In this document: positions 26,101 through 39,807 of the stretch, one piece after another
How the letters are laid out: the number at the start of each line of letters is the position of its first letter
Position numbering within the stretch: the stretch's first letter is position 1
Source: Actinomycetales bacterium
Lineage (GTDB): Bacteria > Actinomycetota > Actinomycetes > Actinomycetales > Kineosporiaceae
NCBI GenBank assembly: GCA_012719445.1
Contig: JAAYAH010000262.1
Coordinates: 1 to 64,000, forward strand
Direction of reading: 5' to 3'
DNA: 64,000 bases
Made by a program: the position numbers and the translations under genes
The notes under the pieces: generated by a model
Database searches by the model: none
What the model saw: the letters and a program-made list of their open reading frames with translations, nothing else
Told to the model about the DNA's origin: nothing

Positions 26101-27344
26101 CCCGGGTGTCCCGGCCCGTCGTCGAGCGACTCGTCGTCACAGGAGCCTTCGACACCCTGCACGAGCTGGGAACCTCGCTGTCGTTGGGGCGGCGGGACAG
26201 GATCACCCGTCGTGACCTGCTGCTCCAGGTCGCCGGGCTGGCTCGGTGGGCCCCGACCTCCCGGTCAGCTCCCCGGTCTGTCCCGCACCCCGCCCCGAGG
26301 TCCGGGCCGCACCCTGCCCCGAGGTCCGGGCTCGCGAACCGTCCTCGCCCCCCGGCCGGCAACACGTCCAGCGACCCCCCGGGCCCCGGCGACTCTCCGT
26401 GCCCCAGCGACCCCCCGGGCCCCGGCGACCTCTCAGGCACCGGCGATCCCCCCGGCAGCGACGACCCCGGGGGGTGCCCGGTCCAACTGGTGCTGGATCT
26501 CGGCGGCCCGGTCGGGATGGCGCCGAGCGGACTGCCGGAGATGACCGCGGCCGAGCGGGTGCGGGCCGAACTGGAGGTGCTCGGCCTGGACGCCAGCCGG
26601 CACGTCGTGGACTTCTACGCGCCGCTCCTGGACGCCCTCGGCGTCACCAGGGCCGGCGAGGTGCTGACCCGGCGGAGCCGGGCCGCGCTCCTGGTCGCGG
26701 GGGCCAAGGTGGCGACCCAGACCCCGCTCATCCGCTCCGGCCGCCGGGTCGTCTTCCTCACCCTCGACGACGCCACCGGACCGGTCGACGTGACCTTCTT
26801 CGAGGACGCCCAGGACCAGCACGCCGCGACGGTCTTCGGCTCCTGGCTGCTCCTCGTCAGCGGGGTGCTGCGGCGCACCGGACCGCGAGGGGTCTCGGTG
26901 CGGGCGACAGGGGCGTGGGAGCTCCCGGCGCTGTGGGAGGTGTGGGACGAGGGCGGGATCGCGGCGGTCCGGGCGGTCCTGTCCCGGGCGGCCGGGCCGC
27001 CGGACGTCGCAGTCGGCCAGTCCCACCCCGCTGCGCCCCACCCCGCTGCGCCCCACCCCGCTGCGCCCCACCCTGCCGTGCCCCACCCCGCTGCGCCCCG
27101 CACCGTCCCTGCGGGCCGGGACGGTGCCGTGTTCGGGATCGACCGGGACGAGGCCGACGCGGCGACGGGGCTGCCGGTCGGCGACCGGAACCGGGTGCGC
27201 CGACGGTCCGGCGGGATGGGCGGGGGCCAGCGGTACCGCCACCTGGCAGGCGTCGGGGAGGCAGGCGCCGGGGCGGGCGGTGGTCCCGGCACCGAGCTCC
27301 CGCGCGGGCTCTGGCACGCCAGCCAGGGGAGCAGCGGACGGTGA
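23157..27344 (+). CDS. dnaE2: Error-prone DNA polymerase III alpha subunit DnaE2
   Basis: A 1,395-residue C-family polymerase, unusually long for DnaE2. The N-terminal PHP domain starts FTHLHVASSYSFRYGAST and reads LTDRDGLHG where DnaE1 has ITDHG, so metal-binding His residues are lost and PHP nuclease activity is unlikely. The palm keeps the catalytic aspartates (PDVDLD near residue 450, LGLLKLDLLG near 600). A helix-hairpin-helix region and an OB fold (about 1134-1268) follow. Extra length comes from disordered insertions: His/Gln/Pro-rich (about 884-943), Pro/Ser/Gly-rich (about 1028-1108) and an HPAAP repeat tail. DnaE2 copies damaged DNA under SOS. The ATG at 23157 starts the fold; the frame is open further upstream without homology. 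Confidence 0.85.
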   Translation: MTFTHLHVASSYSFRYGASTPEDLVALAADQGMEALALTDRDGLHGAVKFALACISRGVTPLLGVDLAVRPTGALDGLPCGRQPARRRSPVRGGAGRDPRLPRVTVLALGRDGASGSAPAPGWGRLCRLVTATHLGGERGKPVADLDLVAEHAVSRGGGGPALAVLLGPASEVGRAVLARRSDLALAVLDRWRSALPPGSVAVEVVCHRGPEQGLAGLWHAARMLSLARAAGVPAVLTNAVRYATPDGAVTVDVLDAARRLVPLDLRHVDRVSAEGSLTSPAYMRRLAGDVATAAGEGGDGADRLLADTADLAGRCRLDPGSDLELGSTHLPELQVLGLGASADADAVLRAHCEAGIGRRHPGAAPSTVNVILDRLAAELDAIARLGYAAYFLTLEQVCGLIRDLGVRVAARGSGAGSLVNHLLGISGVDPIRYDLLMERFLPPRPGRIPDVDLDVESARRTEVYQAIIDRFGADRVACVAMTETYRVRHAIRDVGAALGLPPAEISAIATAFPHIRARDVRRAVGELPELRSSGLAAPALDLLFDLVERLDGLPRHAAMHPCGLLLSDLSLHDRTPVENTLSGFPMSQFDKDDVEDLGLLKLDLLGVRMQSAMAYALTEIARVDGPDVARAGGHPPDAPYLDRETGRIELDGIPHDDETTFRLIRSTHTLGCFQIESPGQRELIGKLVPETFDDLILDISLFRPGPVKSDMITPFLMARHGWEVPRSLHWLVDSPLEETAGVVVFHEQVMKIISHVTGCSLSEADELRRMLGTPEELGRCEERIRAGALGQGCAEEDVQEIWEILLSFGSFGFCKAHAAAFALPTYQSAWLKAHHPAAFLAGVLTHDPGMYPKRLILDEARNLGITVLPLDVNRSGWHYQVERLTDPAHAPQHQDLQQHHASQHQDPQGLVPADPLPSGPTSADPLPSGPTSDGPGPELPDGRGYGIRLSLADVKGITEAEVDRIVVARPYESLADFWHRARVSRPVVERLVVTGAFDTLHELGTSLSLGRRDRITRRDLLLQVAGLARWAPTSRSAPRSVPHPAPRSGPHPAPRSGLANRPRPPAGNTSSDPPGPGDSPCPSDPPGPGDLSGTGDPPGSDDPGGCPVQLVLDLGGPVGMAPSGLPEMTAAERVRAELEVLGLDASRHVVDFYAPLLDALGVTRAGEVLTRRSRAALLVAGAKVATQTPLIRSGRRVVFLTLDDATGPVDVTFFEDAQDQHAATVFGSWLLLVSGVLRRTGPRGVSVRATGAWELPALWEVWDEGGIAAVRAVLSRAAGPPDVAVGQSHPAAPHPAAPHPAAPHPAVPHPAAPRTVPAGRDGAVFGIDRDEADAATGLPVGDRNRVRRRSGGMGGGQRYRHLAGVGEAGAGAGGGPGTELPRGLWHASQGSSGR
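25895..25954 (+). repeat. 30-base tandem repeat in dnaE2
   Basis: Two identical 30-base copies (25895-25924 and 25925-25954) encoding ADPLPSGPTS twice, within the first disordered insertion of DnaE2. Identity at DNA level suggests recent duplication. Confidence 0.9.
26283..26330 (+). repeat. 24-base tandem repeat in dnaE2
   Basis: Two copies (26283-26306 and 26307-26330) differing at one base, encoding HPAPRSGP-like octapeptides in the second disordered insertion of DnaE2. Confidence 0.85.
27021..27095 (+). repeat. 15-base tandem repeat near the end of dnaE2
   Basis: Five adjacent 15-base units with consensus CCCCACCCCGCTGCG; the fourth is the most diverged. They encode five HPAAP-like pentapeptides in the C-terminal tail, downstream of the OB fold. 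Such an array is prone to slippage, and repeat number may vary between strains. Confidence 0.9.
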
Positions 27345-30311: not shown

Positions 30312-32708
30312 TCAGCGCGGTGCCTCCATGAGGTGGGTGTCGAGCTCGCGCGGGTCGATCCTGCTCGGGTCGGCCTTGTCGCCGGAGCCCTCCAGCGCCA
30401 GCTCGGAGTCGGGACGGCCGACCGACCCGAACGCCGACGCGGGCAGCCACCTGGCCTTCCGCCGGGCTCCGCCGGGCACCGCCCGGGTCACCCCCTTCGT
30501 CACCGTCCGGACGTCGAGCACGACCTTGCCGGTCTCGCGGCCCCCCTCGGCGTCGGGGCGGACGTAGCGCGCGGTCTCCAGATCGCTGACGAGCCGCCCG
30601 AGAGCCGCTCGCTCACGCTCGCCCAGCTTGGCCTTGTCGCCGAGCCAGGTCTGTACCGTGCGCGGTGTACGGGACCGCGACCAGGCCACGCCCAGGTCAC
30701 CGAGCCGCTCCCGCAGCTCCTCCCACGCCGCCTCGGCGCGGGCGACCCTGCCCTTCGCCCGGCGCCAACGGATCCGTCGCCGGACGGAGGCGACGACCAT
30801 GGGCAGGAACGCCAGCAGGGTGAGCACGGCGATCGCGGCCACCACCCGCCACGGCAGGTTCTCCGCCATCGTGACGTACCACTCCTGGTCCGTCTTCTTG
30901 TCCTCCGCCCCGGGGTCGGCGTCGACGGGGGCCTCGGAGGCCGTCGGGGTCGGGGTCGGCACGGGGTCCGTCGGCTGCTGGACGTCCTGAACGGCCCACG
31001 TCGGCCGCTCGGTTCCGCCCCGGGTGCCCGGGGTCGGCTCGAACCGCACCCACCCGACGCCCTGGAAGTACAGCTCGGGCCACGCGTGGGCGTCCCGCAG
31101 GCTGATCTCCCAGGAGCCGTCCTGGCGCCGGTCACCCGGCAGGAACCCGACCGCGACCCGGGCCGGGATCTGCAGGGTGCGGGCCATCACGGCCATGGTG
31201 GAGGCGAAGTGCACGCAGTACCCGCGCCGCTCCTTGAGGAAGACCTCCATGACGGCGAGGCTGCTGTCGTTGTTGCCGTCCCCGGGGGCCTCGGTCGTGT
31301 ACTGGAACCCGCCGTCGTTCCGGAAGTAGTTCTGCAGCCGAACCGCCTTGGAGAACGCCGGGCCGTCGCCGGCCACCCGTCTGGCGGTGTCCCGGATGAG
31401 CTGGGGGAACCCCCGGGAGGGCAGATTGGTGTAGGGGGTGGTGGTGAAGAACTCCTGGGCGGGGGCCGGGGCGGCGGCGAGCTGCTCCGCTGTCGGCACG
31501 ATCCGCAGGTGTTCGACCGAGTAGTCCAGGTCCCTGGTCTCGATGCCCTGGCCGATGACGTTGAGGGAGCGCATGTCGTACAGCCACGTCCCGGTGACGT
31601 CCACCTTCGTGCTCGGGTAGGGCAGCGGGAGGTAGTTCTGGTTGAGCTGGCCGACGGCGATCCGCGTGTTCTCCCGGAAGGTCTTGACCGCGGGGTTGTT
31701 CAGCCCCGGCGGGTCGGGGAGGCCGGCCTGGACCCGGTTGTCCGCCGGCGGGATGGTCCCGGGGCTCGGCGACCATGTGGTCCCGTCGAAGACGTCGGCG
31801 GAGACGATCCGCAGCGGCTCCGGTTGCGCGACGCTGGTCCGGTAGGTCAGCACGACGCGGTCGGTGCGCGCGCGGAGGTCGTGGCGCAGGTCGAGGATCG
31901 GGTTGATCACACTGACCGTCGAGTTGCTGCCCCGTGCCCGGCTGCCGTCGTTCCCCTCGCCACCGATGAGGCTGTCCCCGAGTCCGGGGATGAGCACCGG
32001 GACGATCACGGCGAGGGCGAGGGCGATGGCACCGGACCGGGCCCCGCCGCCGGCGACCCAGCGGACGATGCCGCTGCCCGGCTCCTGGTCGAACCGGGTG
32101 TCGCCGAGCAGCCGCCCCCACGACCTGATCCGGTCCGCGGCGTCGGCGCTGACGAGCAGCAGGAACCCCAGGGCGCCGACGGTGAACCAGAACCAGGACA
32201 ACCCGGAGGGGAGCACCGACGCCGGAACGCAGTAGACGGCGAGCAGGGGGAGGCCCGCGACGGCTGGCCGGCGCAGGGTGACCGCGAGCAGGTCGATGAG
32301 GAAGGCGATCATGCCGAGTCCGCCGGCGACGACGAGCAGGACGGCGGCCGAGGCCGACACCGGTGGTGCCTGGAGGCGGAGCGTCTCCAGGCCGTCGGCG
32401 AGCAGGTCGGACATCGCCCGGACCGCCTCCGGCCCGGGGACGATGCCCCCCAGCGCCTCGTCGTGGGCGAACAGGGCGGTCACGGTGAGCAGGAGGGTGA
32501 GGAGCTGCACGGTGATCACGGGGAGCCACCACCGGCTGACCTGGCGCACGGCGGCGCCGGCCATGGCCATCGGGGCGACCACGACGGCCACCACGACGAA
32601 CCAGCCCCAGCCCTGCAGCGTCGGGCGCAGGGTGAGCGCGCCCAGCAGGGTCGCGATCGACGCGGCCAGCGTGAGCCGGCCGTGCGCGGAGAGCGTCATC
32701 CGTCTCAC
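30312..32708 (-). CDS. Transglutaminase-like membrane protein (TgpA family)
   Basis: A 798-residue membrane protein with a DUF3488-type N-terminus of several TM helices (residues about 12-210), an extracytoplasmic transglutaminase-like domain, one TM helix (WRVVAAIAVLTLLAFLPMVVA) and a basic cytoplasmic C-terminus (DUF4129-like). Catalytic residues are visible: Cys near residue 497 in RGYCVHFASTMAVMARTL and His near 541 in LRDAHAWPELYF, with the expected Asp further on. A Pro/Thr-rich linker (PTPTPTAS) precedes the last TM helix. It is the third gene of a moxR-DUF58-transglutaminase operon. Its GTG overlaps the DUF58 stop. The substrate is unknown; an envelope function is likely. Confidence 0.85.
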   Translation of the reverse strand: MRRMTLSAHGRLTLAASIATLLGALTLRPTLQGWGWFVVVAVVVAPMAMAGAAVRQVSRWWLPVITVQLLTLLLTVTALFAHDEALGGIVPGPEAVRAMSDLLADGLETLRLQAPPVSASAAVLLVVAGGLGMIAFLIDLLAVTLRRPAVAGLPLLAVYCVPASVLPSGLSWFWFTVGALGFLLLVSADAADRIRSWGRLLGDTRFDQEPGSGIVRWVAGGGARSGAIALALAVIVPVLIPGLGDSLIGGEGNDGSRARGSNSTVSVINPILDLRHDLRARTDRVVLTYRTSVAQPEPLRIVSADVFDGTTWSPSPGTIPPADNRVQAGLPDPPGLNNPAVKTFRENTRIAVGQLNQNYLPLPYPSTKVDVTGTWLYDMRSLNVIGQGIETRDLDYSVEHLRIVPTAEQLAAAPAPAQEFFTTTPYTNLPSRGFPQLIRDTARRVAGDGPAFSKAVRLQNYFRNDGGFQYTTEAPGDGNNDSSLAVMEVFLKERRGYCVHFASTMAVMARTLQIPARVAVGFLPGDRRQDGSWEISLRDAHAWPELYFQGVGWVRFEPTPGTRGGTERPTWAVQDVQQPTDPVPTPTPTASEAPVDADPGAEDKKTDQEWYVTMAENLPWRVVAAIAVLTLLAFLPMVVASVRRRIRWRRAKGRVARAEAAWEELRERLGDLGVAWSRSRTPRTVQTWLGDKAKLGERERAALGRLVSDLETARYVRPDAEGGRETGKVVLDVRTVTKGVTRAVPGGARRKARWLPASAFGSVGRPDSELALEGSGDKADPSRIDPRELDTHLMEAPR

Positions 32709-34027
32709 GATCCCGCCACCCCCTGCATCGCCCGCCCGGCCCAGGCGCCCGAGTCGCTGAACCCGCCCACCCGGGCCCAGGTCGTCGCGATCGTCTCCTC
32801 GGGACCGGCCTCGGTGACCATCCAGCCGGTGTCCGCGAGCAGCCGGGCGACCGTGCGCCGCTGCTCGTCGATCTCCTCCGCCCGCCGCTCCGGCAGCGAT
32901 CCCCAGTTGGTGGTGCGGAGCAGGATCGCGATCCCGCGGGCGCCGCCCTGTTGGCCGAGCCTTGCCAGCGCCTTGACGTCGCTCTCGTCGGTCTCGCCGA
33001 GGACGACGACGACGAGGCCGTCCCCGCCGTCCCTGGCCAGCACGTTGACGGCGTCCGCGAGCAGTTCCTGCGGGCCGGTGGTGACCACGGCGAGGTCGTC
33101 GAGCAGGGACCCGGAGACGATCCCGGTGAGCGGCGTCGACCAGGACGTGGTGCGGCCGTCGTGGATGATCCGGACGCCGTAGCGCTGCTCGGCGAGGTGC
33201 ACCGCCACCGAGGCGGCGGCGCTGACCGCCCACTCGAAGGAGGACGCCGGTCCGTCGCCGCGGTGCCCGATCCGCCGGGCGTCGAAGAGCACGGTGGCGC
33301 GCATCCGCCGGGGCTGCTCGTCGGTGCGGACCATGAGCTCACCGCGGCGCGCGGTGGACCGCCAGTGCACCCGGCGGAGGTCGTCACCGTGCCGGTACTC
33401 GCGGGTCGCCACGTCGTCCTCACCGGATGCGGCGGCCCGCCGGGACAGGGACTCGCCCTTCCCGCCCCACATGCTGCCCGGCCGCACCGCGTCGAGGGGC
33501 CAGGTCTTCGGCAGCACGACCAGGGAGTCGGTCGCGCTGAAGGCCCTGGTCACCTCGCACATGCCGAACGCGTCGGTGAGCCGCAGCCGGAGCGGTCCGA
33601 TCGGGTAGCGACCGCGGATCTCCGAGCGCAGCGAGTAGGTGACGGCCGCCTTGCGCCCGCCGGGCAGCCGGTCCAGGACGAACCGGGGCGGGGCGCCGAG
33701 GGCGTAGGGGACGCGGTCCTCGGCGAGCATCACCCTGGTGCCCAGCCTGGTGAGGTTGTGCATCTCCAGCCGCACCCTGGCCATGCCGCCTGCCACGACC
33801 CGCGGCGGGTTGATGCTCCGGGTCAGCGACAGCCGGTAGTTGGCCCGGATCAGCGCGACGGAACAGGCAAGGGGGAGGGCGACGAGGAGGACCGCGACCC
33901 TCATCAGGTCGCTCTGCCCGAGCACCAGCGAGCAGACGGCAGCGGCGACTCCCGCGGCGAGGAACGATCGTCCCCGGGTGGTCAGGCCGGCCAGCGCGGG
34001 CCGGACCCAGGTCGGCAGGCCAGCCAC
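32705..34027 (-). CDS. DUF58 membrane-anchored vWA-like protein
   Basis: A 440-residue DUF58 protein. Two TM segments are near the N-terminus (SFLAAGVAAAVCSLVLG and VAVLLVALPLACSVALI), followed by a beta-rich domain and the signature ATREYRHGDDLRRVHWRSTA. The C-terminal half resembles a von Willebrand A fold (RATVLFDARR), although the full MIDAS pattern is not clear. DUF58 proteins act with MoxR ATPases in uncharacterised chaperone or assembly systems. The gene begins four bases after moxR ends, and its stop overlaps the transglutaminase start, so all three are coupled. Confidence 0.85.
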   Translation of the reverse strand: MAGLPTWVRPALAGLTTRGRSFLAAGVAAAVCSLVLGQSDLMRVAVLLVALPLACSVALIRANYRLSLTRSINPPRVVAGGMARVRLEMHNLTRLGTRVMLAEDRVPYALGAPPRFVLDRLPGGRKAAVTYSLRSEIRGRYPIGPLRLRLTDAFGMCEVTRAFSATDSLVVLPKTWPLDAVRPGSMWGGKGESLSRRAAASGEDDVATREYRHGDDLRRVHWRSTARRGELMVRTDEQPRRMRATVLFDARRIGHRGDGPASSFEWAVSAAASVAVHLAEQRYGVRIIHDGRTTSWSTPLTGIVSGSLLDDLAVVTTGPQELLADAVNVLARDGGDGLVVVVLGETDESDVKALARLGQQGGARGIAILLRTTNWGSLPERRAEEIDEQRRTVARLLADTGWMVTEAGPEETIATTWARVGGFSDSGAWAGRAMQGVAGS

Positions 34028-34031
34028 GGCG

Positions 34032-35009
34032 TCAGGCGCTGGCCCGCGCCCGCGGGACCGGGACGTGGGCGAGGAGGGTCGACACGACGTCCTCGGGCGA
34101 GCGCCGGGCGACCTGGGCGTCCCCGCTGGGCAGCAGTCGGTGCGCGAGCACCGGGAGGGCGAGGGCCTGGATGTCGTCGGGCAGCACGTGGTCCCGGGCG
34201 TCCATGGCGGCGTGGGCCTTGCCGGCCCGCAGCAGGTGCAGGGCGGCGCGGGGGGAGGCGCCGAGCCGGAGGTCCGTGCTGGACCTGGTGGCCCGGACCA
34301 GGGCGACGACGTACTCCTTGACGGCGTCCGCCGCGTACACGGTCTTGGCTGTGGCGATGAGCGCGCGCACGGCCTGCGGGTCGGAGACCGGCCGCAGGTC
34401 GTCGAGGGGCTCCCGGCGGGCGTGGTGCTCCAGCATGTCCATCTCGGCCGCGGCGGAGGGGTAGCCCATGGACAGCCGGGCCATGAACCGGTCGCGCTGG
34501 GCCTCCGGGAGGGGGTAGGTGCCCTCCATCTCGACCGGGTTCTGGGTGGCCATCACGATGAACGGCGGCTGGAGCAGGTAGGTCGTGCCGTCGACGGTGA
34601 CCTGCCGCTCCTCCATGCACTCCAGGAGCGCGGACTGGGTCTTCGGGCTGGCCCGGTTGATCTCGTCGCCGACGACGACGTTGGCGAAGACGGCGCCGGG
34701 CTTGAACTCGAAGTCCTGCCGCTCCTGGTGGTAGACGCTCACCCCGGTGACGTCGCTGGGCAACAGGTCGGGGGTGAACTGGATCCGTCGCACGGAGCAG
34801 CCGGTCGCCCTGGCCAGGGCCTTGGCCAGCATGGTCTTGCCGACCCCTGGGACGTCCTCGATGAGGACGTGGCCCTCGGCCAGCAGGACGGTGACGGCGA
34901 GACGGACGACGTCGCCCTTGCCCTCCACAACGGTCTCCACGGCGGCGCGGATGGCGCCGGTGGTTCGCACGAGATCCTCGAGCGTCGTCGGCTCGCTGGT
35001 CGTGGTCAC
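34032..35009 (-). CDS. moxR: MoxR-family AAA+ ATPase
   Basis: A 325-residue AAA+ ATPase. Walker A is EDVPGVGKTMLAKALA and Walker B is VVVGDEINRASPKTQSALLE. Sensor 1 is VMATQNPVEMEGTYPLPEAQ, followed by DRFMARLSMGYP, and sensor 2 is in LGASPRAALHLL. MoxR ATPases remodel or insert cofactors into partner proteins; the DUF58 and transglutaminase genes that follow are the usual partners. The frame is open upstream to 35294, but an AAGGAG (35020-35015) five bases before GTG 35009 and the start of homology fix the start. It is divergent from mraZ. Confidence 0.9.
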   Translation of the reverse strand: MTTTSEPTTLEDLVRTTGAIRAAVETVVEGKGDVVRLAVTVLLAEGHVLIEDVPGVGKTMLAKALARATGCSVRRIQFTPDLLPSDVTGVSVYHQERQDFEFKPGAVFANVVVGDEINRASPKTQSALLECMEERQVTVDGTTYLLQPPFIVMATQNPVEMEGTYPLPEAQRDRFMARLSMGYPSAAAEMDMLEHHARREPLDDLRPVSDPQAVRALIATAKTVYAADAVKEYVVALVRATRSSTDLRLGASPRAALHLLRAGKAHAAMDARDHVLPDDIQALALPVLAHRLLPSGDAQVARRSPEDVVSTLLAHVPVPRARASA

Positions 35010-35608
35010 GCCGTCTCCTTCGCTCTCATTCCGCTCCGGCTCCCCGCCGGTCACCGTGCCGTCCGGACGAGGAACTCGCGGCCCCGGTCGGTCCAGTGTC
35101 TCAGGACCGGGCGGGGGCGCGATGTCGCCGTGCGTGGTGACCTGCGCGAAATCGGTATCCCCATGACGCTGACGGTGCCGGTTCTGTTCCCATCGCGTTG
35201 ATTCCCCGTGACCGCCACGGCGGGTCGTCACGCGCTGTGTCTGATTGATCCGGATCGTCGCCCCGGGGTGCCTGCTGTGCCTCCGCTGTGACAAGGGGGG
35301 CGATCACGAGGGTCTGCGCGGATCGGGAGCGTCCTGTCGGTCCGGCACAGACCGGATCCCGGTCACTGCCCGCGCCGGTGTCCCCTCCGGCCGGGGGTGA
35401 CCTCCCCGTCCGGTCGTGCGTCGGTCGCCGAGGTCCCCCACTTCCCCCCACCGGCTCCAGGGACCGGGGTGTTTCGCCGGATTTATGGACGCAGATATCC
35501 CCTGTGCGGCATGCATTCACGGTATGGAGGCAGTCGCGACCCTCCGTGGTGGCAACTCGAACGCAGCGCTCTGACCTGCGCATTCAGTGACCCTCTCTAT
35601 CCGCCAGA

Positions 35609-35663
35609 TGGGTGAACCCGATTGACGGTGGAGGGAAGTGGGGTAATGTGGAGCGCGCTGGAG
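35609..35663 (+). promoter_or_regulatory. MraZ operator array: phased TGGRG repeats
   Basis: TGGAG (35629), TGGGG (35639), TGGAG (35649) and TGGAG (35659) recur with exactly 10-base periodicity, each separated by five bases. A further TGGGT at 35609 is in the same register two turns upstream. MraZ of E. coli binds TGGGN repeats with 5-base spacers to repress its own operon. The array covers the spacer, the -10 and the start of the mraZ promoter, as needed for autorepression. Confidence 0.75.
35622..35649 (+). promoter_or_regulatory. mraZ/dcw promoter
   Basis: TTGACG (35622-35627), 16-base spacer, TAATGT (35644-35649): the best match to a housekeeping promoter in the window. Predicted transcription start is near 35656, giving a leader of about 68 bases to the mraZ GTG, which has an AGGAGG at 35711-35716. 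Confidence 0.8.
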
Positions 35664-35723: not shown

Positions 35724-36155
35724 GTGTTCCTCGGCACGCACTTCCCGCGCCTGGACGACAAAGGCCGGCTGATCCTTCCCGCGAAGTTCCGCGAGCAGCT
35801 CGAGCGGGGGGTCGTCGTGACCAGGGGGCAGGAGCACTGCCTCTACGTCTTCCCGATCGAGGAGTTCGAGAGGTTGGCGGACCAGCTTCGGCAGGCACCC
35901 GTCACCAGCAAGCAGGCCCGCGACTACCTGCGGGTCTTCCTGTCCGGTGCCTCGGACGAGGTCCCGGACAAGCAGGGGAGGGTCACGATCCCCCCCGTGC
36001 TCCGCACCTATGCCGGGCTGGATCGCGACTGCGCGGTCATCGGTGCGGGACAACGCGTGGAGATCTGGGACGCCCGCGCCTGGGAGGCCTACCTGGCCGA
36101 GCAGGAGCAGTCGTTCGCCGACCAGGCGGAGGAGGTGGTTCCGGGGATCTTCTGA
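35724..36155 (+). CDS. mraZ: Transcriptional regulator MraZ
   Basis: A 143-residue protein with two SpoVT-AbrB-type folds in tandem. Each carries the [16 protein letters not shown]-like turn: the first is [17 protein letters not shown] (about residues 12-28), the second [19 protein letters not shown]. It forms ring-shaped oligomers that bind repeated DNA sites and repress the dcw operon. The putative operator repeats are on its own promoter. The GTG start has an SD AGGAGG seven bases upstream. A gap of 194 bases with a small hairpin (GGTCACC 36281-36287, GGTGACC 36295-36301) separates it from rsmH. Confidence 0.92.
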
Positions 36156-36349
36156 CACACGGCGACGTCTTCTCGTCCCGACGGCGAGGTCTCCAGCCGC
36201 CCGCCGCGACCTGTCGCGTCTTCCCCGGCGACAGGCAGCGGGCGACCGGCGCGGATGGAGACCTGGTCGCCGGGACGTGTGGTCACCGGAGAGGGGTGAC
36301 CGCGGCGTCGACGGGGGCCGAGAGCACGAACAGGGTCGGGAGGGTCGAG

Positions 36350-37827: not shown

Positions 37828-39807
37828 GTGACCAGGTCACGCACCGGCGCGGCCACCCAGCGCGCCCGCACCGGCACGGCCACCCAGCGCGCCCGCACCG
37901 GCGCGGCCACCCAGCGCGCCCGCACCGGCACGGCCACCCCCCGCGCCCGCACCGGCGCCCTCGCCCCGGAGGCGAAGTACCCGACTCCCGGCCGTGGCAG
38001 GGCGCCCTCCCGCAGGCGGACGGCGCAGGGACGGCCCGCCAGGCGCCCCGCCGAGCGCCAGATCGTGCGGGTGCGCCGCCGGCTGCGCACCGCGGATCCC
38101 GACCGCAGGCTGCGGACCGGGCTGCTCGCCGTGTTCTTCGTGTTCAGCCTGTTCGCCGGGAAGCTCTTCCAGATCCAGGGACTCGACGCGTCCGCACTGG
38201 CCGCCGAGGCGCTGCGCACCAGGACGACGGAGATCCCGCTCCCGGCGCACCGGGGGGACATCGTCGACACCAACGGGACGGTCCTGGCGACCACCGTCGA
38301 GCGCCGCAACATCACCGTCGACCAGACCCTGGTCGGGGAGTACGAGCGCAACGTCAACGGCATCACCACCAAGGTCGGGGTGCGCGGTGCCGCGAAGGAC
38401 CTCGCCGGGCTGCTGGAGCTGAGCCCGGCGACGGTCGCGGCCCGGCTCACCGGCGACCGCCGCTACGGCTACGTCGCCAAGAACGTCTCGCTCGAGGTGT
38501 GGCGCCGGGTGGAGCGGCTGCGGATCCCCGGCATCTTCAGCGAGCCGGCCGACCGCAGGATCTACCCCTCGCGCGAGGTCGGGGCGGCCGTCGTCGGGTT
38601 CGTCGGCAGCGACGGCATGCCCCTCGCCGGGGTCGAGCTGGCGATGAAGGACGTGCTGGCCGGCCGGGACGGCAAGCGGGTCTCCGAGATCAGCGAGGAC
38701 CGGCGCGAGATCCCGATGGGGAAGGCGTCCGAGGTCCAGCCGATACCCGGGGGGACCGTCCGGCTGACCCTCGACCGGGACCTCCAGTGGAAGGCCCAGG
38801 AGACGCTCGCCCGGCAGGTGCGCAACACCGGGTCCGAGTCCGGCTACGTCGTCATCCAGGACGTGAGCACCGGCGACGTGCTGGCGCTCGCCACGTCGCC
38901 GACCTTCGACTCCAACGACCCCGGCGCGGCACCGGCGGCGGACCGGGGCAACCGGGCGCTGCTCGACGTCTTCGAGCCCGGGTCGACGAGCAAGGTGATC
39001 ACCGCGGCCGCGGCGATCGAGGAGGGCGCGGTCCGGCCGGGCACCCGGATCCACGTCCCGGACTCGATCAGGCGCGGCGGCAGGGTGTTCCACGACTCCC
39101 ACGACCATCCCGCCTACACGATCACCTTCGCCAGGGCGCTCGCCGAGTCGAGCAACGTCGGCATGATCAGGGCGGGGGAGCTGGTTCCGGCCCGGACGAT
39201 GTACGGGTACCTCACCGCCTTCGGCCTCGGCAACCGCACCGGGATCGGCCTGCCCGAGTCCCGGGGGCTGCTCCCCCCCGCGGACCAGTGGAACGCCTCG
39301 CAGCGGTACACCGTGCTCTTCGGCCAGGGGCTCGCCGTGACCGCGCTGCAGGCGACCGGGGTCTTCGCCACGATCGCCAACGGCGGGGTCCGGATGACGC
39401 CCCGGATCGTCGAGGGGGTCACCGCGCCGGGGAGCGGCGCCTTCACCGAGTTCCCCGTCTCCGAGGGCCGCCGGGTGATCAGCGAGCGCACCGCGACCCA
39501 GATGGCGCGGATGCTGGAGGCGGCGGTCGCCGAGGGCACCGCCTACCGGGCGTACATCCCCGGGTACCGGGTGGCGGGCAAGACCGGCACCGCCCAGGCG
39601 CCGGACTCCTCCTGCGGCTGCTACCGGGGCTACACCGCCAGCTTCATCGGCTTCGCCCCCGCCCAGGACCCGGAGCTCGCGGTGTCCGTCGTGCTGCAGC
39701 GGCCGAGCCGGGGCAGCTACTACGGCGGGGCCATCGCAGCCCCCGTGTTCAAGGAGGTCATGCGGTACGCGCTGACCCACAGGGGCGTCGCCCCGAGCGG
39801 GCGGTAG
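37828..39807 (+). CDS. ftsI: Septal peptidoglycan transpeptidase FtsI (PBP3/PbpB)
   Basis: A 659-residue class B penicillin-binding protein that crosslinks septal peptidoglycan. Active-site motifs: Ser386 in EPGSTSKVI (SxxK), SSN at 441-443, KTGT at 585-588. A TM helix (LLAVFFVFSLFAGKLFQI) lies near residues 92-110, preceded by a long basic cytoplasmic region. Residues about 5-45 are four copies of a nine-residue RTG-A/T-ATQRA repeat, encoded by a 27-base DNA repeat, which is unusual. The dimerisation domain (PAHRGDIVDTNGTVLATTV) follows the TM helix. The GTG start has GGGGAGG about seven bases upstream. It partners FtsW. Confidence 0.93.
   Translation: MTRSRTGAATQRARTGTATQRARTGAATQRARTGTATPRARTGALAPEAKYPTPGRGRAPSRRRTAQGRPARRPAERQIVRVRRRLRTADPDRRLRTGLLAVFFVFSLFAGKLFQIQGLDASALAAEALRTRTTEIPLPAHRGDIVDTNGTVLATTVERRNITVDQTLVGEYERNVNGITTKVGVRGAAKDLAGLLELSPATVAARLTGDRRYGYVAKNVSLEVWRRVERLRIPGIFSEPADRRIYPSREVGAAVVGFVGSDGMPLAGVELAMKDVLAGRDGKRVSEISEDRREIPMGKASEVQPIPGGTVRLTLDRDLQWKAQETLARQVRNTGSESGYVVIQDVSTGDVLALATSPTFDSNDPGAAPAADRGNRALLDVFEPGSTSKVITAAAAIEEGAVRPGTRIHVPDSIRRGGRVFHDSHDHPAYTITFARALAESSNVGMIRAGELVPARTMYGYLTAFGLGNRTGIGLPESRGLLPPADQWNASQRYTVLFGQGLAVTALQATGVFATIANGGVRMTPRIVEGVTAPGSGAFTEFPVSEGRRVISERTATQMARMLEAAVAEGTAYRAYIPGYRVAGKTGTAQAPDSSCGCYRGYTASFIGFAPAQDPELAVSVVLQRPSRGSYYGGAIAAPVFKEVMRYALTHRGVAPSGR
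37841..37948 (+). repeat. 27-base tandem repeat at the start of ftsI
   Basis: Four adjacent units (37841-37867, 37868-37894, 37895-37921, 37922-37948) of GCACCGGC-R-CGGCCACCCAGCGCGCCC type, alternating one base (GCGCGG/GCACGG), with a partial fifth. The encoded peptide repeat is basic and disordered, on the cytoplasmic side of FtsI. Confidence 0.9.

What the first reader, a model, noticed from the sequence alone, without database searches (positions are those of the whole stretch)
35609..35663. Five in-phase MraZ-type repeats on the dcw promoter
TGGRG occurs at 35629, 35639, 35649 and 35659 with exact 10-base spacing, plus TGGGT at 35609 in the same register. The array overlaps the spacer, -10 and start of TTGACG-N16-TAATGT. 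This is more repeats than the three described for E. coli, and all lie on one helix face, fitting a ring-shaped MraZ oligomer and strong autorepression.
Basis: partly seen in the sequence, partly recalled or inferred. Interest (0 to 1): 0.6.

Follow-up and report, generated by a model that had tools for sequence, protein, structure and literature searches.

The report
MraZ operator with inverted upstream partner
The repeats are the normal docking sites through which the division regulator MraZ is expected to shut off the cell-division gene cluster, four rather than five here; many related bacteria also carry a backwards pair of the same sites upstream, at whole turns of the DNA helix, as if MraZ tied the DNA into a small loop.

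Summary
The four TGGRG boxes at 35629, 35639, 35649 and 35659 are real, exactly 10 bp apart, and sit on the -10 of the mraZ/dcw promoter. No 3-box array occurs elsewhere in the 5.4-Mb genome. They are the ordinary MraZ operator of Actinomycetia: in 115 non-redundant relatives, boxes occur at -10, 0, +10 and +20 of the -10 box (78, 115, 92 and 33 loci) and 17 loci have four. Four repeats are also reported in Burkholderia.

The 'fifth box' (TGGGT, 35609) is not supported: TGGRG occurs at that offset in 0/115. It lies inside GGGTGAA, which recurs in Cellulomonadaceae out of the 10-bp register.

The interesting part lies outside the given coordinates. On the opposite strand at 35450-35436 is a second in-phase pair (TGGGGGGAAGTGGGG). 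Inverted two-box pairs occur upstream of mraZ in 73/115 relatives (at most 12 at any other spacing; 5 direct pairs). Proximal pairs in 112 genomes from 56 genera sit 71-75, 81-85 or 92-93 bp from the -10 box, with none half a turn away. This suggests a looped, lac-like MraZ repression complex. The window's own pair is distal (188 bp), where phasing is weaker. Binding and looping are inferred.

The parts
35622..35627 (+). -35 hexamer TTGACG of the mraZ/dcw promoter
   Evidence: TTGAC 17 bp before the anchor box in 53 of 115 relatives
35629..35633 (+). MraZ box 1 (GTGGAG)
   Evidence: TGGRG at this offset in 78/115 relatives
35639..35643 (+). MraZ box 2 (GTGGGG), anchor box fused to the -10 (TGGRGTA)
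   Evidence: TGGRGTA present in 115/117 non-redundant relatives
35644..35649 (+). -10 hexamer TAATGT, shares its last T with box 3
   Evidence: second commonest -10 form, 14/115; the listed forms are all TAnnGT
35649..35653 (+). MraZ box 3 (GTGGAG)
   Evidence: TGG at this offset in 114/115, TGGRG 92/115
35659..35663 (+). MraZ box 4 (CTGGAG), weaker, near the expected transcription start
   Evidence: TGGRG at this offset in 33/115; common in the own family
35610..35616 (.).
   Evidence: TGGRG 0/115 at this offset; GGGTGAA mostly 40-41 bp from the anchor in relatives, 29 bp here
35572..35580 (.). TGACCTGCG element, unknown binder, at the conserved distance of 67 bp from the anchor box
   Evidence: TGACCTG at 65-68 bp in 42 of 115 relatives
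35436..35450 (-). Inverted two-box MraZ-type auxiliary operator TGGGGGGAAGTGGGG, 188 bp from the anchor box
   Evidence: inverted pairs in 73/115 relatives
35724..36155 (+). mraZ, 143 aa
   Evidence: PF02381 2e-41; solved homologues 1n0e, 9qlr, 9qlg, 9sx6
30312..35012 (-). Divergent MoxR (AAA_3) - DUF58 - TgpA transglutaminase operon; moxR start near 35012 is my estimate
   Evidence: Pfam

Best explanation
35629-35663 is the main MraZ operator of the mraZ/dcw promoter. Three strong direct boxes and one weaker one, 10 bp apart, cover the spacer, the -10 and the expected start, so a MraZ oligomer bound there would exclude RNA polymerase and repress mraZ and the dcw genes. It has a partner: an inverted two-box MraZ-type site upstream (35450-35436). 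In the class Actinomycetia such inverted pairs are placed at whole helical turns from the main operator. The likeliest reason is that MraZ bound at both places makes one complex, bending the DNA between them into a short loop and strengthening repression, as lac repressor does with O1 and O3. Shown: the boxes, their orientation, conservation and spacing. Inferred from known MraZ biology: binding and repression. Inferred here: looping. The fifth box is not an MraZ box.
For: Main operator; mraZ identity; binding to such repeats and repression known in E. coli, Mollicutes and Burkholderia (PMC7761207, PMC8475190). Inverted pair: 37/41 loci with divergent moxR (at most 4 at any other period); 26/49 loci without moxR (at most 5), including 13 of 23 where the upstream gene DUF3040 reads the same way as mraZ, so it is not tied to a divergent promoter; 73/115 non-redundant against 5 direct pairs and 0 inverted triples. 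No pair upstream of the 17 moxR loci in which no mraZ was detected. Phasing: 112 genomes, 56 genera, gaps only 71-75, 81-85, 92-93; none at 76-80 or 86-91; 57 of 58 genus-level values in phase; resultant length 0.80 against a null maximum of 0.41. Two or more spacing classes occur inside seven families. Phasing also holds in 15 loci without the TGACCTG element. In vivo lac repression depends on helical phasing over 57-156 bp spacings (PMC1762422).
Against: No binding or expression data. The window itself has lost the proximal pair (35551-35565 does not match); its pair is distal (188 bp). Distal phasing is supported in one data set (63 genus-level values, R 0.33, p 0.0009, same phase as the proximal ones; own family n=8, R 0.82) but not in a separate class-wide scan (19 values, R 0.21, p 0.42). 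Thirty-seven percent of relatives have no inverted pair. Phasing could also reflect contact on one helix face without a loop.
Confidence: 0.55

Rival explanations
1. Only the main direct-repeat operator acts on mraZ; the inverted pair is a separate MraZ site that represses the divergent moxR-DUF58-transglutaminase operon.
For: In 37/41 loci with divergent moxR the pair points toward moxR.
Against: Pairs occur in 26/49 mraZ loci without moxR, including 13 with a co-directional upstream gene; no pair at 17 moxR loci lacking a nearby mraZ; in the window the pair is about 425 bp from the estimated moxR start. It does not explain the helical phasing to the mraZ operator.
Confidence: 0.15
2. The inverted pair acts without a loop, for example as a roadblock against read-through from upstream genes, or by placing MraZ to contact another protein on the same helix face (perhaps the TGACCTG binder).
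For: TGACCTG sits at a fixed 66-67 bp in many loci; some pairs lie just after the DUF3040 stop codon.
Against: A roadblock needs no helical phasing; phasing holds in 15 loci without TGACCTG.
Confidence: 0.2
3. The array is just the plain MraZ operator and the window's own distal pair is a chance leftover with no role.
For: Proximal pair absent in the window; class-wide distal phasing not significant.
Against: It is the only minus-strand 10-bp pair in 64 kb (shuffle frequency 0.004); most members of the own family keep one.
Confidence: 0.25
4. Five in-phase MraZ boxes.
For: TGGGT is at 35609 in register.
Against: 0/115 TGGRG and 2/115 TGGGN at that offset; embedded in GGGTGAA, which lies off register in relatives.
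Confidence: 0.04

Closest known systems
E. coli MraZ operator at Pmra
   Same: Direct TGGGN boxes 10 bp apart upstream of mraZ; three in MG1655; MraZ represses the operon (PMC8475190, PMC7761207 citing Eraso 2014)
   Different: Three boxes, downstream of the -10 (PMC7761207), and no inverted pair upstream; here three to four boxes on the -10 plus an inverted pair
Burkholderia cenocepacia MraZ site
   Same: Four 7-nt repeats with 3-nt spacers (10-bp period), bound in gel shift (PMC7761207)
   Different: Downstream of the -10 over the transcription start; no auxiliary pair described
Mollicutes MraZ box AAAGTG[T/G]
   Same: Direct repeats; the Actinomycetia boxes often read AAGTGGAG (PMC8475190 for the motif)
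   Different: No inverted partner described in the papers read
lac O1/O3 repression loop
   Same: Main operator at the promoter plus an auxiliary operator about 90 bp upstream, function dependent on helical phase (PMC1762422)
   Different: LacI tetramer with palindromic operators; MraZ sites are directional box arrays, the auxiliary one inverted; looping not shown
MtrA control of mraZ in Dietzia
   Same: A second regulator binds the mraZ promoter in an actinomycete (PMC9602371)
   Different: Binding site not defined in the passages read; whether TGACCTG or GGGTGAA is a MtrA site is unknown

Membership tests
MraZ-regulated dcw promoter | Located directly upstream of mraZ | tested here: met
   PF02381 2e-41 at 35724-36155
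MraZ-regulated dcw promoter | Direct GTGG-type boxes with 10-bp period | tested here: met
   four boxes; conserved
MraZ-regulated dcw promoter | Boxes overlap promoter or start | tested here: met
   -10 TAATGT lies between boxes 2 and 3
MraZ-regulated dcw promoter | MraZ binds and represses | not testable with these tools
   needs gel shift, footprint, reporter
Five-box array | Fifth in-register box conserved | tested here: not met
   0/115 TGGRG, 2/115 TGGGN at -30
Repression loop with auxiliary operator (lac-like) | Second operator for the same protein on the same DNA | tested here: met
   inverted pair with the same box and spacer, 73/115; that the same protein binds it is inferred
Repression loop with auxiliary operator (lac-like) | Spacing in helical phase | tested here: met
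   proximal class, in relatives: 57/58 genus-level values in phase
Repression loop with auxiliary operator (lac-like) | Helical phase for the window's own distal pair class | tested here: inconclusive
   p 0.0009 in one set, p 0.42 in another
Repression loop with auxiliary operator (lac-like) | Physical loop, phase-dependent repression | not testable with these tools
   needs spacing mutants or single-molecule work

The most novel reading that the evidence does not exclude
In Actinomycetia the MraZ operator is bipartite: a direct-repeat main operator on the -10 and an inverted two-box auxiliary operator at about 73, 84, 94 and further whole turns upstream, with one or two MraZ rings closing a short DNA loop. 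This would be a DNA-looping switch at the head of the cell-division cluster, in which the ring engages two oppositely oriented DNA segments.
Probability: 0.45. Interest if true: 0.75.

Novelty: new variant of a known kind. Interest (0 to 1): 0.55.

Why it matters
MraZ is among the most widespread bacterial regulators, yet why it forms a ring and why its sites are box arrays is not settled. A second, inverted box pair held at whole helical turns in dozens of genera gives the ring a concrete job (joining two DNA segments) and a simple test (5-bp against 10-bp insertions). It also means that MraZ site maps which look only for direct repeats near the promoter would miss part of the operator in many Actinomycetia.

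Tried and rejected
Fifth box at 35609: rejected by conservation. MraZ regulation of the divergent moxR operon as the reason for the inverted pair: weakened because pairs persist without moxR and with a co-directional neighbour, and are absent at moxR loci away from mraZ. An apparent -10 motif (CTAGGGCTG) after some inverted pairs in Kocuria-like loci reads as the DUF3040 stop codon, not a promoter (my reading). Identity of the TGACCTGCG and GGGTGAA binders: not found; MtrA binds the mraZ promoter in Dietzia but the passages read give no motif. A regulon search in the own genome with three boxes gave only this locus; two-box sites elsewhere were not examined. Class-wide distal phasing was not significant. 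The consensus promoter/terminator scan found nothing. Eraso 2014 is not held. Paper searches for a MraZ ring-DNA structure and for repeat operators found nothing on an inverted or looped MraZ site, but the library lacks most subscription papers. One Pfam call failed on frame; the rsmH entry was read in a wrong frame and gave no hit, so rsmH is named from its position only.

Full report
WHAT IS THERE. TGGRG boxes start at 35629, 35639, 35649 and 35659, each 10 bp apart, over TTGACG-N16-TAATGT; a TGGGT lies at 35609. In the window these boxes are the only 10-bp TGGRG pairs on the + strand, and none of 5000 dinucleotide shuffles of the intergenic stretch gives four. The three-box pattern matches nowhere else in the 5.4-Mb genome. 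The gene 60 bp downstream is a real mraZ: PF02381, E 2e-41, 34% identical to E. coli MraZ, and matching solved MraZ structures. The closest relatives are unnamed Actinomycetota, then Georgenia, Actinotalea and Cellulomonas.

HOW ORDINARY IS THE ARRAY. I gathered 80 mraZ loci from the genome collection, 12 from other members of the own family and 30 from a class-wide search, and kept 117 non-redundant upstream regions. Of these, 115 have a box fused to the -10 (TGGRGTA), which I used as anchor (35639 in the window). TGGRG is found at offset -10 in 78, at +10 in 92, at +20 in 33 and at +30 in 6; off register the mean is 0.4%. The listed -10 forms all read TAnnGT, so the promoter and the boxes are interlocked. 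Totals of 2, 3 and 4 boxes occur in 51, 43 and 17 loci. Four boxes are therefore not exceptional, and Burkholderia cenocepacia is reported with four repeats (PMC7761207). E. coli K-12 has three TGGGN at 10-bp spacing, and in E. coli they lie downstream of the -10 (PMC7761207).

THE FIFTH BOX. At offset -30, where TGGGT 35609 lies, TGGRG occurs in 0 and TGGGN in 2 of 115 loci. TGGGT here overlaps GGGTGAA. That motif recurs in Cellulomonadaceae, mostly 40-41 bp from the anchor (about 31 bp before box 1), which is outside the 10-bp register, and in some species it is reversed as TTCACCC. It is better read as a site for another, unknown protein, though I cannot exclude that the copy in the window, at 29 bp, is a chance match.

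A SECOND, INVERTED ELEMENT. The minus strand carries TGGGGGGAAGTGGGG at 35450-35436, the only minus-strand 10-bp pair in 64 kb (shuffle frequency 0.004). In 41 loci with a divergent moxR, 37 have such a pair on the moxR strand at period 10, against at most 4 at any other period from 6 to 20. In a further set drawn from the own order and class, which overlaps the first by a few loci, it is 31 of 47 against at most 3. Without moxR next door the pair is still there in 26 of 49 mraZ loci (at most 5 at other periods), including 13 of 23 where the upstream gene, DUF3040, reads in the same direction as mraZ. Of 20 moxR loci chosen for being away from mraZ, three turned out to carry mraZ in the fetched stretch; the 17 others have no pair. 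The pair therefore belongs to the mraZ promoter region, not to moxR. It is nearly always inverted (73 of 115 loci against 5 with an extra direct pair) and no inverted triple was found. Its spacer resembles the first spacer of the main array.

SPACING. The gap between the inverted pair and the anchor box is quantised. In whole-genome pattern scans of the order and the class (two samples of nearly 400 genomes each, partly overlapping) 112 genomes from 56 genera match, with at most one hit of the reversed control pattern per scan. Their gaps are 71-75 (86 genomes), 81-85 (20) and 92-93 (6), and none is at 64-70, 76-80 or 86-91; 57 of 58 genus-level values are in phase, and the resultant length at 10.5 bp is 0.80 against a null maximum of 0.41. 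In the same list families f3, f6, f9, f17, f19, f20 and f35 each contain two or more spacing classes, so whole-turn shifts happened repeatedly while half-turn shifts were not seen. Loci without the TGACCTG element obey the same rule (15 loci). In a phylum-wide sample of 137 genomes only one, outside the class, matches. Whole-turn placement is the signature of two sites whose bound proteins must meet on the same face of the helix, and at this range the usual cause is a short loop; lac repression in vivo depends on helical phase for spacings of 57 to 156 bp (PMC1762422).

WHAT THIS MEANS FOR THE WINDOW. The window keeps the TGACCTGCG element at the conserved 67 bp (35572-35580; present at 65-68 bp in 42 of 115 relatives), but the proximal pair expected near 35551-35565 is gone. 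What remains is the distal pair at 188 bp. Distal pairs of the first data set share the phase of the proximal ones (10.26 and 10.28 bp modulo 10.5; distal p 0.0009), as do those of the own family (n=8, related species). A separate class-wide distal scan, dominated by one family with many pairs, shows no phasing (p 0.42). For the window itself the loop is therefore plausible but not established.

MECHANISM. Most likely MraZ binds boxes 1-4 and blocks the -10 and start; a MraZ oligomer on the inverted pair joins it or is the same ring, and repression becomes tighter and more switch-like. Repression by MraZ at such boxes is known in other bacteria (PMC8475190, PMC7761207). Binding here, looping, and the sharing of one ring are inferences.

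NOVELTY. MraZ box arrays are known. I found no report of an inverted, helically phased auxiliary MraZ site, but the searchable library omits most subscription papers (Eraso 2014 was not held), so this is an absence from what I could read. I rate it a new variant of a known kind.

Noticed in passing
window 36171-36284 (+): Rfam mraW RNA motif (RF01746, 53.5 bits, E 1.7e-8) in the mraZ-rsmH gap: a known cis-regulatory RNA candidate, so the dcw head here has both a MraZ operator and an mraW RNA.
   Followed up: no
window 35572-35580: TGACCTGCG, conserved at 66-67 bp from the -10 box in over a third of relatives, with or without the inverted MraZ pair; binder unknown.
   Followed up: partly
L005 (Georgenia sp. 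EYE_87), 278-350 bp upstream of the anchor box: Four inverted MraZ pairs in a 24-bp tandem repeat upstream of mraZ, plus one at 74 bp: an expanded auxiliary array.
   Followed up: no
L176 (G042:C1:2684920-2686120): Dense cluster of TGGGG/TGGAG boxes with mixed spacing between moxR and mraZ.
   Followed up: no
window 37840-37958 (+): 27-bp coding tandem repeat, 4.4 copies, at the N-terminus of FtsI, giving a repetitive low-complexity N-terminal tail.
   Followed up: no
window 27022-27099: 15-bp tandem repeat CCCACCCCGCTGCGC, 5.2 copies; gives TGGGG every 15 bp on the minus strand, unrelated to MraZ spacing.
   Followed up: no
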